DNA of 18,710 nucleotides. Source: Aureococcus anophagefferens. Lineage: Eukaryota; Sar; Pelagophyceae; Pelagomonadales; Pelagomonadaceae. The notes under the pieces are model-generated. The model did no database searches. It had not been told where the DNA came from and worked only from the letters and a program-made list of their open reading frames with translations. Shown piece by piece: positions 1 through 14,500 of this stretch; position 1 is the first letter of the stretch, and the number at the start of each line of letters is the position of its first letter. A program made the translations under genes and the position numbers. The DNA is taken from positions 278,653-297,362 of the forward strand of contig NW_008705597.1 in assembly GCF_000186865.1 (NCBI RefSeq), written 5' to 3'.

Positions 1-381
1 ACGCCGTCCCATCCGAGCCCCTGGCCGACGCCGTCCCTCGCGGACGTCCCCGGACTGGGGCGGACGCGTCGTGACCGCCCCCGGGACCACCCGGTATCGT
101 TAGCAATTGTTTCGTACTTCTGGGGGGGGTCGACCGTGGTCAGAGCCCTTTACAGGACCATAGGCTCAGCCTACTGGACCTACCGCTACCCTGACTGACC
201 TTCCCCACTGAGGAGGCTCTCCTCCTTTCTTTCTCCTTTCCTATCCCAAAGTACTGAGATCCTCCCTCCCTGGCGCTAACGCCAGTAGGTCAGTCCACGT
301 AACTCTCGCAGCTGCCCCTGCGAGCTCACTTCAAGGCCACTACCCAGAGAAGCCTTCTCCCTCTGTTCTTTTGCCTGCACA
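1..381. other. Non-coding, possible LTR remnant
   Basis: No recognisable gene. The first ~100 bases are GC-rich; from about 107 the sequence becomes pyrimidine-rich with short hairpins: CTGGCG-CTAA-CGCCAG near 270-290, and CTCGCA/TGCGAG arms near 303-325. The stretch from TG at 108 to CA at 381 has LTR-like boundaries and stops exactly where sulfatase coding sequence begins. The flanks AGCAA (102-106) and AGCGA (382-386) match at 4 of 5 bases, which is weak support for a target duplication. A solo LTR is possible but unproven. Confidence 0.2.
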
Positions 382-1245
382 AGCGACGTGCGTCGCAGTT
401 TCGTGTTCTGCAGCCCGACGCGCAGCTCGTTCCTCTCGGGCCGGCTGCCCATTCAACACTCGCAACGACGACCCCGACGTCTGGAGTGCCGCGAGCGGCG
501 AGGGCGCGGGGATCGGCACCAACATGACAGGGCTGGCAACGCGTGGGCGGGCGCGTACGAGGAGAAGCTCTTCAAGGCCGAGGCCACCGCCATCATCGGC
601 GACTTCGCCGCGGCCGCGGCCGACGGCGACGACGCGCGGCTGTTTTTGTATTACGCGTCGCACCTGTCGCACACGCCGATGCAGGTGGAGCAACATGTGC
701 TCGACGCGTTCCTCAACGAGAGCGCCACGCTGTCGCTGCCCGGTCTGGGCTACGCGGCCATGACCAACGCGCTCGACGCCGCGGTGGCGAACGTCACCGC
801 GGGATGTGGGAGCGCACGCTGTTCGTCTTCTAGTCGGACAACGGCGGCCCAATCTACGCCGCGAACTTTCGAGCGACCGGCGGCTGCCCGAGCGCCATGC
901 GGCCGGGGATGCATCCCTACGGGACCGGCGGGGCGGGAACCCTACCGCTCGACGTGCCTCGACTTTGGCGGCGCCGCGAACAACTGGCCGCTTCGCGGCG
1001 GCGAGGCCAGCTGCTGGGAGGGCGGCGTGCGCGTGGCTGGCTTCGTGAGCGGGGGTGCGCTGCCCGCGGCGCAGCGCGGCACGCGCTGCGCCGGACTGTT
1101 GCACACGGCGGACTGGTACGCAACCTTTGGCGCGGGGCTCGCCGGACTCGATCCAACCGACAAAGCCAACACAAGTTTTTTTTTTATAAAATAAAAATGA
1201 TTTGCGTATGAACATATTAAACATAAATCTATATACTTATTTAAA

Positions 1246-1470
1246 ATGGATGTCATGCATGTAATTAAGCGCGATAATTCCCGTGAAACTGTTTCTTTTG
1301 ACAAGATAGCGAAGCGATTTAAACAATTGATTAATGGCGATTCTAAAAAGAAACCGTTGAAAGTAGATTGGATTTCACTTACTCAGAAGATTTGTGGTGA
1401 AATGTATTCTGGCGTTCATACTCACGAATTGGATGAACTTGCTGCTCAAACGTGTGCCTCTCTTATTACA
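1246..1470 (+). pseudogene. Ribonucleotide reductase large subunit, N-terminal ATP-cone fragment
   Basis: Class I ribonucleotide reductase large subunits make deoxynucleotides; their first ~90 residues form the ATP-cone allosteric domain. The ATG at 1246 opens a frame with the ATP-cone hallmarks: HVIKRDNSRETVSFDKIAKR (residues ~5-24), a SLTQKICGEMYSGV stretch (~45-58) and THELDELAAQTCASLITE (~59-76). Homology stops abruptly at residue ~76, where the family continues into a conserved HPDY-type motif and some 700 more residues. Codon third positions are mostly A/T, unlike the flanking GC-rich sulfatase. Composition, truncation and compact AT-rich leader suggest a piece of giant-virus DNA, since many NCLDVs encode this enzyme. 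A cellular origin from an AT-rich genome or organelle-like donor is not excluded. Confidence 0.75.
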
Positions 1471-1482
1471 GAATGTGCTTCA

Positions 1483-1543
1483 GGAGTGGTGTCATTGACA
1501 CCACTCAACGGAGTGTCTGTCAATATTGTCTTCAACTCCGTTT
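1483..1543. repeat. Nested inverted repeats at the 3' end of the AT-rich insert
   Basis: GAGTGGTGTCA (1484-1494) is followed after one base by its exact complement TGACACCACTC (1496-1506). AACGGAGT (1507-1514) pairs with ACTCCGTT (1535-1542). ATTGACA (1494-1500) pairs with TGTCAAT (1518-1524). The same short words recur in alternating orientation within 60 bases, as expected from fold-back or template-switch synthesis at a junction. This is where the ribonucleotide reductase reading frame loses homology. Confidence 0.8.
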
Positions 1544-1842
1544 CTATAGACGCGGGGCGCGGCGAGCGGGCTGCCCTCGATCGACTCGCTGGACATGTGG
1601 CTGATGGTGAGCGGTGCGAATGCGACGTCGAGCGGAAAGCCGGGGCCGCGCGCGCTAGTGACGGCGCGGTACAAGCTGCTGCTTGGAAACGCGGGCGCGC
1701 CCGGCCTGGGGATGGACGGCTGGACGGGCCCGCACTTTCCCAACGCGAAATCGATGGACCACACCTGGCCCCAGACTGCGGCGCGGGCCGCCTCTTCGAT
1801 TTGCTGTTGGACCCGACGGAGCATCACACTGCCAAATACACC

Positions 1843-1982
1843 GTACTGTGTCATTCTTATTTCCCCCTGCGATATTGGTTGCTCTTGATTTGTTCTCGGT
1901 TCCTAGTTGCATGTATCTCGTAGATTATTGGCCCCCATATATATAGTTTGATTTATTTGATTTATTTATTTCTTTACTTCAG
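1843..1982 (+). other. AT-rich stretch, possible intron after the sulfatase tail
   Basis: Directly after the sulfatase C-terminal DPTEHH coding sequence, composition turns AT-rich for ~140 bases. It begins GTACTG and ends in a T-rich tract followed by TTTACTTCAG, a good GT...AG intron outline. The downstream sequence is not recognisably sulfatase, so this may instead be another small insertion or 3' flanking DNA. Confidence 0.3.
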
Positions 1983-2285
1983 AGGCATGCAGATCGATCG
2001 ACGCGATCTCGGAGCGATCGACACGGACACGCGCTCGGCGACGGACGCGTCCAGATTTAGGACAATGACGGGTCGACGACAAAGAGGCAGCTGCGCTGGC
2101 ACCGAAACCGACGAGGTGACCTTAAGCTTCAGACCTCCTGCGCGGCCCGCTCGAGGCGCTGGGCGTCGACGGATTTAGGTCGGCAAGCACGCACCGCGCG
2201 ATAGACGCGCGCACCATGACCAGAGGAGTGTCGCCGCTGCCCTCGATCAGGCGAAGGCACCAACGAGGTGCGTCGGATAGCGGCG
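1983..2285. other. GC-rich stretch without recognised gene
   Basis: About 300 GC-rich bases between the AT-rich stretch and the first palindrome. Open frames are short and none gives a protein I recognise. It is rich in CGATCGA-type words near 1990-2025 and may be degraded coding DNA. Confidence 0.4.
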
Positions 2286-2317
2286 TTTAACATATCCCGC
2301 CGGCGGGATATGTTAGC
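2286..2317. repeat. 32-bp element with 28-bp perfect palindrome, copy 1
   Basis: The half-site TAACATATCCCGCC (2288-2301) is followed immediately by its exact reverse complement (2302-2315), with no loop. Two further bases on each side (TT left, GC right) are shared, in inverted orientation, with a second copy at 8950-8981. The flanking DNA beyond these 32 bases does not match between copies. Confidence 0.95.
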
Positions 2318-2363
2318 AAGGGCAAGTGGGCGCGGCCGACCTCGAGGCCCAGACGGACATCAG

Positions 2364-3437
2364 TTACGTCGGCGCGACCTCCAGGACGCCATCGTCCCCC
2401 GCGCCGAAGGCGAACGCGTGGCGGTTGAAGGCGAGGCGGGAGATGTCGGCGCCCGCCGCCGCGCAGAGGGGCGCCTTCGCCGCGAGGACGAGGTGGACGA
2501 GCCAGGCCTCGTTGTGGTCGAAGCCCGTCGTGCCCGGTCGGACGGAGATATCGCAGCCCTCGACGACGGGCGCGCCGAGGGGCGCGGTGTCGACGGCGCC
2601 ACCGCGGGCACCGAGCGCGGCCTTGAGCTCCGCGAGCGTCGCCGGGTAGGCGTCGAACGCCGCGCGCGGCAGCGACAGCCACCACCAGCGCACCGTCGAG
2701 AGGTCCGACGCTCGGGCCGCCGCGGCGTCGAAGGGCAGGAAGCCGCCGCCGCCGCCGCGCGCGGCGCCGCGGTCCGCAAAGGCCCGGGCCGTCGCAAAGA
2801 CGCGTTCGAAGGTCGCGCCGCGCGCGTAGTGGTACAGGTCGTAGCGCGCGTGCACGCCGTCGCGCGACGGCGCCAGGGACGCGAGCCGGAAGGACGGGTC
2901 GGCCCACAGGACGTCCGTGCGCGCGCAGACGACCGCGTCGAAGCCGCGCAGGGCGGCGCCGAAGCGGTCGACGGCGACCGCGAGCTGGGCCTCCGCGTGG
3001 GCGCCCCGGGGCGCCGCGGCGACGGCGGCGTCGGCGCAGCCGACGCCGCCGCCGCCGGACGTCGCAGTTCGCGCAGGCCAGGGCGAGGGTCTCCGTGAGA
3101 TTCGTCGCCGCGTAGGGCGCCGCGGCCGCGAGATTCTCCGCGACGCCGCCGCAGCGATCGGCCACGGCGTCGAAGACGCACCGCGGCGCCGGCGACCCGG
3201 CGCAGCCGTTGGCGCGGTGCGCCGCCATCGTGGACCGGACGGCCGCCTCCACGGCGGCCGGCCATGCAGACGCGGGCAGCTCGTCGACGACCGCCGCCGC
3301 CGCCGCCCGACGTCCGGCGCCGCGTCGAGGCGCCACTCGACGCTGAGCGGCGCGTCCCCGAAGACGTTGGCGATCTGGACGGCGCACCACTCGGCGCGCG
3401 CCCAGGTCGCGAGGAGGACGAGGCTCCGCGCCGTCAT
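2364..3437 (-). pseudogene. Frame-broken glycosyltransferase-like protein
   Basis: A very GC-rich coding stretch of ~350 codons read over three segments. The ATG at 3437 starts MTARSLVLLATWARA, a possible signal or anchor, followed by EWCAVQIANVFG. The frame then changes near 3290-3312 to VVDELPASAWPAAVEAAV and CANCDVR, and again near 3040-3065 to GCADAAVAA and the C-terminal half. That half holds FDAVVCARTDVLWADPSF, YDLYHYARG, DLSTVRWWWLSLP, GFDHNEAWLVHLVL and a TAA stop at 2364-2366. The RTDV motif after a hydrophobic strand, with a Trp-rich block and a late NEAWLVH, resembles GT-A-fold algal glycosyltransferase-like proteins, but no canonical DxD is evident, so the family is tentative. Both frame changes sit in GCC/GCG-rich runs, typical of polymerase slippage or sequencing indels. 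If those are errors, the gene could be intact. Confidence 0.55.
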
Positions 3438-7641: not shown

Positions 7642-7859
7642 AGTCGACTCCAGGCGCTGTCAAGGTTTCTTCAACGAATGGCCCCGAGCGTATGGCTGCA
7701 AAGCCCTGCTTCTCACGATTCCGCAAATCCAAAAATCTCGCGAATCGATGAGGTTTGAGCTGAGTTATGAGCATCTGAATGGCTGCCGCAGTGGGCCGAA
7801 ATGTATGTCAGAAGCTGCTCCGGTGCGAGGGTTAGTCCTGGCTCCGGCCACGCGGACTT

Positions 7860-7996
7860 CGCGGGAGACTGCCTGATACTTCGCGGGAGACTGCCTGATA
7901 CTTCGCGGGAGACTGCCTGATACTTTGCGGGAGACTGCCTGATACTTTGCGGAGACTGCCTGATACTTCGCAGGAGACCGCCTGATACTTCGCGGG
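7860..7996. repeat. 22-bp minisatellite, six units
   Basis: Units of CGCGGGAGACTGCCTGATAC plus TT run at 7860-7881, 7882-7903, 7904-7925 (identical), 7926-7947 (one change), 7948-7968 (21 bases, one deletion) and 7969-7990 (two changes), then a partial unit to 7996. There are no spacers between units, so it is a tandem array and not a CRISPR array. Confidence 0.97.
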
Positions 7997-8073
7997 ATGT
8001 TTCCGTTTCTACGCGGCCGCGGAGCGACGCGCGGCCGCCGCGCGGAACGCGATCATCGAGTGGTCGGTTTGGA

Positions 8074-8820: not shown

Positions 8821-9006
8821 GAACCCGACGCCTGCGACGACGACGACGACCCCGGGGACGAAGACGACGCCGTCCACTGCGGCTGCTGCTCGAAGATCCT
8901 GGCTCCCACCGACGAGCCGTGCGACAGCTGCGGCGCCATCATCTGCTCCGCTAACATATCCCGCCGGCGGGATATGTTAAATGAACGTTCCCGGAACGTT
9001 CCGTGA
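8821..9006 (+). pseudogene. Acidic zinc-ribbon-like coding fragment reading into the palindrome
   Basis: The frame reads EPDACDDDDDPGDEDDAVHC, then GCCSKILAPTDEPCDSCGAI and ICSA. The Cys spacing C-x-C-C-x10-C-x2-C-x4-C resembles a zinc ribbon or small Cys-rich zinc-binding module after an acidic stretch. Upstream, a GC-dinucleotide run (8806-8820) separates it from a plausible preceding segment (EGHVSFETSSPAQASRA) in another frame, so a slippage frameshift is likely. Downstream the frame runs through the second palindrome copy (NISRRRDML) and stops at TGA 9004-9006. The domain text ends exactly at the palindrome, so the palindrome appears inserted in, or at the break of, this gene. No specific family is assigned. 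Confidence 0.4.
8950..8981. repeat. 32-bp element with 28-bp perfect palindrome, copy 2 (inverted)
   Basis: The core at 8952-8979 is identical to that at 2288-2315. The flanking bases GC (left) and AA (right) match copy 1 only when it is reverse-complemented, so the two copies form a 32-bp inverted pair about 6.7 kb apart end to end. Confidence 0.95.
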
Positions 9007-11521: not shown

Positions 11522-14500
11522 CTAGGTCATGACCGCTAGGTGCTCGAGCGTCTGCGCGCCATCCCCGAGGACGTCGCGCTCGTCGTCCGCGGTCGTCCGC
11601 GCGGAGGCCTCCCGGACCGCGAGCCGGATGGCGGCGCGCAGGTCGTGGTGGAGGTCCTGGAAGTCGGCGGCGCGCCTGCGCACGTCCAACTCGCTCTCGA
11701 TGGACGGCTGGAAGAGGAGGCCCACGACGAGGTCGGCCTTGTCGCGGTCCGCGGGGCCGGCGTCGCGGAACGCGGGGTCGTCGTGGAGCAGCGCGAGCAC
11801 CGCGCGCTCGGCGCGCGCGAAGTGGTCTTCGACGCCCTCGGTGGCGCCCTCGAGCTCGGCCACGGCGCCGTCCTCGTCCTCCACGAGCACGGGGCGGGCG
11901 GCGTCGGCTTCGCGGCGCGCCCGAGCCAGGAACTCCGGCCCTCGCAGGTCGACCGTCGGCTCTGCGTGGACCGCGGCGAGCGTGCACGGCGGCGGCGGCG
12001 TGGAGCCGGCGTCCGCGGCCATGAGCTCGTCGAGGAGCTCGTCGCGGCGCGGCGCGGCGCGGCGCGGCCGCCGCGGCCGCCGCGGCCCGCCCAGGAGGTC
12101 CTCGTCGTCGCTGTCGTCGTCGGCGACCGCGGCGGACGGCGCGGAAGCCGTGGCCGCCACCGCCGGCGTGGCGTCGCGCGCCGGGAGCGCCGCGTCGCGC
12201 GCCGGGAGCGCCGCGTCCGGCGCCGAGAGCGACGCGTCCGGCGCCGGGGCCGCCGGCGCCGGGGGCGCGGGCGCGGGCGCGGGCGCGGCGGCGGCCGCGC
12301 TCGAAGCGGGCGCCGACAGCTGCTCCATGGACGTGAAGACGAAGGACACGAGCGGCGTGTTCGCCGCCGTCGTGACGAGCGGCGCGTCCTCCGACACCAT
12401 CGCGTCGTCGTCGTCGTCGTCGCCGTCGGAGCCTTCCGCGGCCGCGCCGGAGAGCGCGAGCGTCTCGCGGATTCGGAGCTTCGCGTCGAGGAGGTCGCCG
12501 AGCCACGAGGCGCGGCCCTCGCGGGGGATCTCGGAGGCGGCGCGCGCGCTCCAGCGGCTCGGGTCGTGGTGCTCGGGCACGGGCGCGCGCGGGCCGGCGC
12601 TCGCGTCGGCGGCGGCCAGATCGTCGTCGGAATCTTCGCCGAGCTCGTCGAAGTCGCCGCCGCCGCGGTCGTGGAGGCGCGACGGGGACTCGCTCCGCGA
12701 GAAGATCTCGGTTCGGTCCGGGCTCGTGGGCGGCGGGAAGCCGCCCTGGGTGAGGATCGCGCAGAGGCCGTCCTTCTCGGCCTGGCGCCCGACGATCGTC
12801 TCCTCGATCGTGCCCCGGCCCACGAGGCGGATGACCGTGCACGCCCGCGACTGGCCGATGCGGTGGATGCGCATGGCGGCCTGCTCGTCCTGCGCCGGGT
12901 TCCACGAGGGGTTCAGCAACATCATGAAGTTCGCGCCGATGAGCGTAACGCCCTCGAGGTTTTGGACCGTCGCGAGCATGCACCGCGCGTCGAGCTCGTT
13001 CAGGGACCGCCGGTTTGCCGAGCGCGTCGCGGCCGACTGCTCGCCCGTGTGCCAGACGCAGAAGCGCGGCGCCGACCAACGGGACCTGCGGCGGGGCGGG
13101 CCGGTCGCGCGTGCGGCGACCCCCGCGACGCGGACGCTGGTTCGCGACCGGATCCAGTTCGCGATGATGACCAGCGGCATCTTGAACGACGACGCGACCA
13201 CGACCTTGCCGCGAGTCCTGGTCAAAATGTGGGTCAAAATCACGGCCGCGGCCTGCAGCTTGCCGCTGAGCTCGAGCACGCGGTCGGGCCTCTCGGGCCA
13301 GGGCCGGAAGACGCGGTCCGCCGACAGCTTCTCCGCGCCCGAGTTCAGCAGCGACGCGTGCACGCAGAGCTTCTGGAGCGCGCCGACGAGCACGAGGGCC
13401 TTCGCCGTCGCCGCCCCGCCCCGCGCCGCGGCGCGTTCGCAGACGTGGTCGTAGAGCTGCTTCTCCGCCGGCGTGAGCTCGACGACGACAATGTGCGTCG
13501 TCTGCGGCGGCAGCGCGAGCGCTTGCGTCTCTCGCCGCAGGTGCAGGCCGCCGAGCGTGTTCTGGAGCCACGACCACGCGCGCTCCGCGACGAACGCGCG
13601 GCCTGGGCTCGCGCCGACGACGCGACCTTGGTCGATGCGCGCGAGGAGAACGTAGGGCAGAGTCGCCGGGTCCAGGAGCAGGAGGAGCGTGTGGAGCTCG
13701 GAGAGGTCGTTGCTCATTGGCGTCGCCGTGAGCAGGAGCAGGCGGCGGCGCCGAAGGCTGGACGCGACGGTGGACTGCTTCGTGCCGGGGTTCTTGAGCC
13801 TGTGGGCCTCGTCGAAGACCTCCTCGCCTCGTCGAAGACGAGGAGGTCGAGCATGGCCGTGAAGGCCTTCGCGTGCCGCACCATGGCCTCGTAGCTGATG
13901 ACCGCGACGAGCGGCGCCGACGTCGTCGCCAGCCGCCGCAGGACCTCCGCGACGGACAGCGCGCGGGAGTCGCCGTCGGCGGTGACGATGGCCGGGGCCT
14001 CGGTGCCGAGGAACTTGCGGAACTCGGCGAGCCAGACGGGCACGACGGTGGCCGGCGCGACGACCAGGACCCGCGTCGCCGCGGCGCCTGCGCCGTCTTG
14101 CCCATGCCCGGCGCGTCGCCGAGGATCGCCGCGCGCCGCGCGAGCACGAACTCGACGCCCTCGCGCTGGTGCGGCTTCAGCGCGTCCGCGAGGCCTCGCG
14201 GCACGTCGCGGAGCGCGGGCGCCGGCGGCGGCCGCGCGCGGACCGGCGGATCGCCGCGCGTCGGCTCGGCGGCAGGCGCGGGGACGAGTCCGCGAGGAGG
14301 GTCTGGGGCGTCAAAACGAGGCGAAAATCCGGCTCCTGCCGCGCGCGCGGGTCCGGGAGCGGAGGCAGAAGCGTTTCCGCGGTGTCGGTCGCGGCTCCCT
14401 CGCCGTCACCGGGGCGCGCCGACGCGCCTGGAGCGGGATCGGGGCCGCCCATGACATGGTCGCCGCGGGCCCGCCCCTCGCCGGCAGTGTCGACGGCCGG

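What the first reader, a model, noticed from the sequence alone, without database searches (positions are those of the whole stretch)
1168..1552. Virus-like ribonucleotide reductase fragment inserted in an algal sulfatase gene
Seen: sulfatase coding text breaks at GLDPTDKA and resumes at SGLPSIDSLDMW, with ~380 AT-rich bases between that carry ATG plus ~75 codons of ATP-cone sequence. Known: large DNA viruses of algae often encode class I ribonucleotide reductase and are often AT-rich. Inference: a small piece of giant-virus DNA was captured, perhaps during break repair. An insert this short, with its own leader and start but truncated after one domain, would be a fossil of infection.
Basis: partly seen in the sequence, partly recalled or inferred. 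Interest (0 to 1): 0.75.

Follow-up and report, generated by a model that had tools for sequence, protein, structure and literature searches.

The report
Giant-virus gene scrap in brown-tide alga
A dead sulfatase gene of what is very probably a brown-tide alga holds a tiny, almost unchanged piece of a gene from an uncultured giant virus, most likely pasted in when the cell mended broken DNA, and this points to a second giant virus that infected this alga recently.

Summary
Window 1168-1550 is a 383-bp foreign insert in a sulfatase pseudogene of what is very probably Aureococcus anophagefferens. It carries 78 codons of a ribonucleotide reductase (RNR) large subunit. They match an intein-bearing RNR on a 60-kb metagenome contig at 77 of 78 residues; a host RNR matches at 38 of 77 aligned columns. 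A tree that groups the piece with host RNR is rejected (p-AU 1.85e-5).

New here: the insert is a composite. Its last ~70 bases are the end of a T-shaped palindrome seen at two other host sites. One, on contig C55, is a 3,020-bp patchwork with a MutS piece that matches a metagenomic MutS at 299 of 300 residues. A copy of that site without the insert exists in the same genome: the insert replaces 4 bases, with no target duplication. That favours end joining of viral DNA over transposition. No protein named for the cultured virus AaV appears in the hit rows shown.

Not shown: reads across the junctions, the donor contig itself, and whether the palindrome is a viral genome end.

The parts
388..1167 (+). 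left part of the sulfatase pseudogene (frame slips; in-frame TAG at 831-833)
   Evidence: paralogs are Pfam Sulfatase
1131..1138 (+). direct repeat CGCGGGGC, first copy; the C75 copy lacks exactly one repeat copy, 29 bp and the insert (420 bp)
1168..1245 (+). AT-rich leader of the insert (15% G+C)
1193..1200 (+). AAAAATGA, the early-promoter octamer reported for the Aureococcus virus AaV; only copy in the window
   Evidence: 336 of 20,000 dinucleotide shuffles of the leader contain it, while 73 of 200 shuffles of the whole window contain at least one
1246..1479 (+). 78 codons of a viral-type RNR large subunit, ending inside the ATP-cone
1480..1550 (+). 3' part of a repeated T-shaped palindrome, ending CCGTTTCTATAG-A
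1484..1506 (.). inner hairpin GAGTGGTGTCA-T-TGACACCACTC
1551..1558 (+). direct repeat CGCGGGGC, second copy
1553..1861 (+). right part of the sulfatase pseudogene (frame ARGAASGLPSIDSLDMW...; its end was not determined)
7856..7997 (-). 6.5 copies of the same 22-bp tandem repeat that precedes the palindrome at C34 and C55
7998..8012 (+). terminal motif (CCGTTTCTA) next to host DNA; a host paralog (L176) begins at 8013

Best explanation
The insert is a short, recent endogenous viral fragment from an uncultured giant virus that infected Aureococcus. Shown: the coding part is the start of an RNR gene of a lineage known from metagenomes and distinct from host RNR; it is joined to the end of a palindrome that recurs in other inserts with foreign genes; one of those inserts replaced 4 host bases with no target duplication. 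Inferred: the donor is a giant virus; during an infection that the cell lineage survived, non-adjacent pieces of viral DNA, with a recurrent end among them, were ligated together and into a chromosomal double-strand break by end joining. The piece is a dead scrap with no function of its own; its value is as a record of the virus.
For: RNR piece 77/78 aa to P0001, an intein RNR on a 60,394-bp metagenome contig. Fragment in a 13-row clade (100/94) with P0001 as its sister (84/86), host RNR with Ectocarpus (99/95); fragment plus host held together rejected, p-AU 1.85e-5. GC3 31% (RNR piece) and 29% (MutS piece) against 99% for host RNR. MutS piece in the sister insert 299/300 aa to P0122, a MutS with domains I, III and V, of the type described for giant viruses (passages of PMC3166940 and PMC6459981). 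C55 insert is a patchwork. Empty site on C41: 3,020 bp replaces TTCA, flanks 99.8-100% identical. AaV-type promoter octamer in the leader.
Against: Only 78 codons. The P0001 and P0122 contigs could not be read, so that they are viral is inferred. The array and palindrome were not found in any virus contig (0 exact matches for the array and for the hairpin core), so their viral origin is unproven. No giant-virus capsid or VLTF3 match in the genome, although those searches rang in no control genome either and N stretches were not seen. One C55 frame had no homologs. No clean empty site for the window's own insert: C75 also lacks 29 bp of flank and one repeat copy. A shared end at 4 of 5 places is more than random breakage predicts. 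The octamer is not significant over the whole window.
Confidence: 0.75

Rival explanations
1. A host or viral mobile element, whose fixed end is the 22-bp array plus T-shaped hairpin, picked up viral gene pieces and moved them (Helitron-like or another hairpin-ended element).
For: The motif CCGTTTCTA(TAG) lies at or within 8 bases of the host junction at 4 of the 5 places with array or palindrome. The inner hairpin at C55:41801 differs at 3 of 23 positions yet keeps pairing, with one change on both sides and one G-T wobble.
Against: Few copies: 3 palindromes and 4 arrays in the visible genome. At C55 there is no target duplication but a 4-bp loss, and the ends are not 5'-TC...CTRR-3' between A and T, the Helitron rule as recalled. 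The left ends and contents of the three palindrome inserts differ. No transposase or helicase was seen in the frames scanned in the inserts.
Confidence: 0.13
2. Remnant of a much larger integrated giant-virus genome, most of which was later deleted.
For: Other AT-rich islands lie on the same contigs (C37:258903-260102, C55:100251-101950), one with a NUMOD4/HNH endonuclease.
Against: The C41 empty site shows the C55 insert as one 3,020-bp replacement of 4 bases. One donor-grade RNR place and one donor-grade MutS place were found.
Confidence: 0.06
3. Assembly chimera or viral contamination of the sequenced culture.
For: No reads were available; the named gene models P0002 and P0121 may come from the same assembly; the C75 and C41 copies lack the inserts.
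Against: The same palindrome end meets host DNA at three separate places. Flanks on both sides of the window's insert continue collinearly with C75.
Confidence: 0.05
4. A pseudogene piece of the host's own nuclear RNR.
For: The host has five places with an RNR ATP-cone besides the window.
Against: 38/77 aligned columns to host against 77/78 to P0001; tree and AU test; GC3 31% against 99%.
Confidence: 0.01

Closest known systems
Viral DNA pieces in the Ectocarpus siliculosus genome (PMC2373305; abstract and outline seen)
   Same: Pieces of large DNA virus genes scattered in an algal genome, mixed with repeats.
   Different: There they are close to a virus that integrates its genome; here short patchworks, near-identical to metagenomic proteins, with an empty site that shows a 4-bp replacement.
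Giant endogenous viral elements of green algae (seen only as cited in passages of PMC10120064)
   Same: Giant-virus DNA in an algal nuclear genome.
   Different: Those are reported up to about 2 Mbp; these inserts are 0.4 to 3 kb and mosaic.
Aureococcus anophagefferens virus, AaV (Kratosvirus quantuckense)
   Same: Giant virus of the same host; encodes a MutS; early-promoter octamer AAAAATGA (passages of PMC5917014).
   Different: No row named for AaV among the 120 of 158 RNR hits shown or the 21 MutS hits. AaV itself was not compared. Its genome is reported as circular (passage of PMC10720644).
Terminal palindromes of linear viral genomes, such as AAV inverted terminal repeats (recalled; a resemblance only)
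   Same: T-shaped fold: outer stem plus inner hairpin, next to tandem repeats at C34 and C55.
   Different: No sequence relation was tested, and it is not shown to sit at the end of any viral genome.

Membership tests
Class I ribonucleotide reductase large subunit (fragment) | N-terminal ATP-cone | tested here: met
   Pfam PF03477 E 1.7e-8, profile positions 1-68 of 88
Class I ribonucleotide reductase large subunit (fragment) | catalytic barrel domain | tested here: not met
   The piece ends at codon 78; the barrel is present in P0001 but not in the window. So it is a piece of an RNR gene, not an RNR gene.
Endogenous viral element | sequence closer to a viral lineage than to host genes, within host DNA | tested here: met
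   for the lineage; host flanks. That the lineage is viral is inferred from the tree and from the MutS in the sister insert
Endogenous viral element | junctions confirmed by reads or in another strain | not testable with these tools
   no reads; gene models P0002 and P0121 may share the assembly
Giant endogenous viral element (large integrated genome) | long region with viral hallmark genes | tested here: inconclusive
   no capsid or VLTF3 match in the genome, but no control genome rang, and N stretches were not seen
Helitron | 5'-TC...CTRR-3' ends, insertion between A and T (rule recalled) | tested here: not met
   C55 insert: AAATAC-[AAGG...ATATAT]-AAGAGG against empty AAATAC-TTCA-AAGAGG; tested at this one site
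Cut-and-paste (DDE) transposon | target-site duplication | tested here: not met
   C55/C41 pair: no duplication, 4 bases replaced; tested at this one site, and no clean empty site exists for the window's insert
MutS7 (metagenomic match P0122) | domains I, III and V plus C-terminal HNH (PMC3166940, passages) | tested here: inconclusive
   I, III and V found; no Pfam HNH at E 1e-3; an HH...N...CxxCH stretch is seen by eye at the C-terminus. Relative P0123 also has a weak domain IV hit (E 9e-5)

The most novel reading that the evidence does not exclude
The 22-bp array plus T-shaped palindrome is the telomere of an unknown linear giant-virus genome that infects Aureococcus. Viral genome ends are what the alga's repair machinery preferentially joins into breaks, so the host keeps an end-tagged record of recent infections. 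The paired lesions at the sulfatase site (insert in C37, exact 8-bp microhomology deletion in C75) could be two repair outcomes of breaks at the same spot in two copies, conceivably made by a viral nuclease.
Probability: 0.25. Interest if true: 0.8.

Novelty: new variant of a known kind. Interest (0 to 1): 0.62.

Why it matters
Aureococcus and AaV are a model system for giant viruses of algae. These scraps would tie two metagenomic protein lineages (RNR P0001, MutS P0122) to this host and suggest a second giant virus, recent or current. The C55/C41 pair is a recent insertion with its empty site in hand, so the route by which viral DNA enters an algal genome can be tested directly. A practical point: two annotated proteins (AURANDRAFT_67511 and AURANDRAFT_68074) are host-virus chimeric gene models and should not be used as host ATP-cone or mismatch-repair genes.

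Tried and rejected
Host RNR origin: rejected by identity, GC3, tree and AU test. Phage origin: 54 phage records match the protein, best 41.7% identity; 48 weak DNA matches, none covering 80% of the insert; MutS piece no phage match. Close relatives in IMG/VR: fragment alone 0; by alignment 46 loci, best segment 46%; by full-length alignment 4 loci, 43-48%; MutS piece 0. Terminal 15-mer AACTCCGTTTCTATA: 72 stretches in viral contigs, read as chance and not followed. Alignment A1 had two rows on the wrong strand and was replaced by A2, which left those two host copies out.

AaV as donor: no row named for AaV, and none on a contig of AaV's size, among the 120 of 158 RNR hits shown and the 21 MutS hits. 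That is an argument from absence: AaV was not searched directly, and it does encode a MutS (passage). In five AaV papers searched for 'ribonucleotide' no passage gave AaV an RNR; the single occurrence is a cited title. The gene numbers 67511 and 68074 do not occur in the main text of two of them, and the one AURANDRAFT number in a third is another gene. Paper searches listed none that, from title and the start of the abstract, reports viral insertions in Aureococcus; only the papers named here were opened. Searches were on MutS7 and on end joining.

In the own-genome search with P0001 two short matches, C12:814505-814618 (68%) and C6:1170246-1170335 (63%), were not followed.

Full report
WHAT IS THERE. 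The window lies at the end of contig C37 of a 49.05-Mb, 86-contig genome. The session gives it no name. Two public gene models of Aureococcus anophagefferens, AURANDRAFT_67511 (P0002) and AURANDRAFT_68074 (P0121), carry host-foreign text like that of C37 and C55, so the host is taken to be A. anophagefferens. The models may come from the same assembly and are not independent proof of the junctions. Sulfatase text stops at GCC 1165-1167 and resumes after 1550. The family call rests on paralogs: 3 of 3 scanned are Pfam Sulfatase. The gene is a pseudogene: C37 and its near-identical copy C75 share frame slips and an in-frame TAG at 831-833.

THE INSERT. 1168-1550 is 383 bp, 34% G+C, between flanks of 71% and 59%. 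It has three parts. (a) 1168-1245 is a leader of 15% G+C. It holds AAAAATGA at 1193-1200, the only copy in the window. This octamer is the early-promoter core reported for the Aureococcus virus AaV (passages of PMC5917014). 336 of 20,000 dinucleotide shuffles of the leader contain it, but 73 of 200 shuffles of the whole window contain at least one, and the bases after the core do not follow the longer published pattern; it is weak support. (b) 1246-1479 is 78 codons of an RNR large subunit that end inside the ATP-cone. (c) 1480-1550 is the 3' part of a palindrome that recurs in the genome.

WHOSE RNR. A search of 5.8 billion proteins with residues 1-79 gave 158 hits, 120 shown. The best is P0001, an intein-bearing RNR on a 60,394-bp metagenome contig: 77 of 78 residues; P0003 has 71 of 78. 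The genome has five other places with an RNR ATP-cone, 49-50% identical to the piece; the C21 copy has 38 of 77 aligned columns. In a tree of 48 N-terminal rows the fragment lies in a 13-row clade (support 100/94) as sister of P0001 (84/86), while host RNR joins Ectocarpus (99/95). Forcing fragment and host together is rejected, p-AU 1.85e-5. A full-length tree of 47 rows keeps P0001 apart from host RNR, in a 29-row group (94/88) that holds two proteins named 'viral metagenome' and three IMG/VR loci. Third-position G+C is 31% in the piece and 99% in host RNR. That the donor is a giant virus is inferred from these facts and the MutS evidence below; the P0001 contig could not be read.

SISTER INSERTS. 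The palindrome occurs at three places in the visible genome (C37, C34, C55), the 22-bp array at four (C34, C37 at window 7856-7997, C55:41.6k, C55:84.4-85.1k). Much of the contigs fetched reads N, so these are lower bounds. The C55 insert (82174-85193, 3,020 bp) contains a MutS piece that matches 299 of 300 residues of P0122, a 940-aa metagenomic MutS with domains I, III and V. It is joined to an unrelated coiled frame (no homologs), a repeat-containing frame, about 31 array units and the full palindrome: a patchwork of pieces that are not neighbours in P0122. MutS7 proteins with domains I, III, V and HNH are described from giant viruses (passages of PMC3166940); an algal giant virus, CpV, has MutS7 and RNR (passage of PMC6459981). 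Pfam did not report the HNH in P0122; a matching stretch is seen by eye. The other MutS-like places in the genome match P0122 at 25-30%. One donor-grade RNR place (98%) and one donor-grade MutS place (98%) were found; two short RNR matches at 63% and 68% were not followed.

HOW IT GOT IN. A search with joined C34 and C55 flanks found contig C41, which carries the C55 flanks without the insert: 99.9% over 1,807 bp on the right, 100% over 308 bp and 99.8% over 608 bp on the left, with one other length difference between the two left blocks. C41 reads CAACAAATAC-TTCA-AAGAGGCG; C55 has 3,020 bp in place of TTCA. That is 4 bases lost and no target duplication, as in end joining and unlike cut-and-paste transposition, and it shows that the C55 insert is recent. 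At C34 the right junction shares 2 bases (AG) with paralogs on C6 and C7. The motif CCGTTTCTA(TAG) lies at the host junction, or within 8 bases of it, at 4 of the 5 places that hold array or palindrome; the fifth, C55:41.5-41.9k, has no mapped junction. A repeated end suggests a physical DNA end or an element end. No virus contig with the array or hairpin core was found, so this step is open. That the window's own insert entered the same way is inferred from its shared end.

THE SULFATASE SITE. Over window 1-2800, C75 differs by 13 mismatches and two indels. One indel is exactly the 420 bp between the starts of two copies of CGCGGGGC (1131-1138, 1551-1558): one repeat copy, 29 bp of sulfatase text and the insert. 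Three histories fit: loss of the insert from C75 by microhomology; an older short deletion in an insert-free copy; or two different repairs of breaks at the same spot. The data do not choose between them, so there is no clean empty site for the window's insert.

VERDICT. A recent endogenous viral fragment from an uncultured giant virus that probably infected Aureococcus, most likely pasted in by end joining. AaV as donor is unlikely but argued only from absence in the rows shown, and AaV has a MutS. The kind, viral DNA in algal genomes, is known. The near-identity to metagenomic proteins, the patchwork with a shared hairpin end, and the empty site make it a new variant.

Noticed in passing
window 7856-8012: A second insert-like feature in the same window: 6.5 copies of the 22-bp repeat ending CCGTTTCTAC directly against host DNA.
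   Followed up: partly
window 2288-2315 and 8952-8979: A perfect 28-bp palindrome TAACATATCCCGCCGGCGGGATATGTTA occurs twice in the window and once in the C75 copy; the whole genome was not searched for it.
   Followed up: no
L030 (C55:100001-108506), bases 420-941: Another AT-rich island (30% G+C frame) with a NUMOD4 plus HNH_3 endonuclease, E 2.3e-10 and 1.1e-12, possibly further viral DNA.
   Followed up: no
L037 (C37:258653-268652), about bases 251-1450: A 34% G+C island about 20 kb upstream of the insert on the same contig, with a 178-aa frame and no family match above cut-off.
   Followed up: no
C55:41540-41830 (L024 1540-1830): A diverged relative: 2 array units, the terminal motif and an inner hairpin that differs at 3 of 23 positions, with one change on both sides that keeps the pair; flanked by an inverted GTACCCTCAT/ATGAGGGTAC and a possible 5-bp duplication seen by eye.
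   Followed up: partly
proteins P0002 and P0121: Public gene models AURANDRAFT_67511 and AURANDRAFT_68074 are host-virus chimeras that carry ATP-cone and mismatch-repair names.
   Followed up: yes
window 11525-13717 (-): A frame with a Helicase_C domain (E 2.8e-6), probably a SNF2-type host helicase gene (the SNF2 label is recalled).
   Followed up: no
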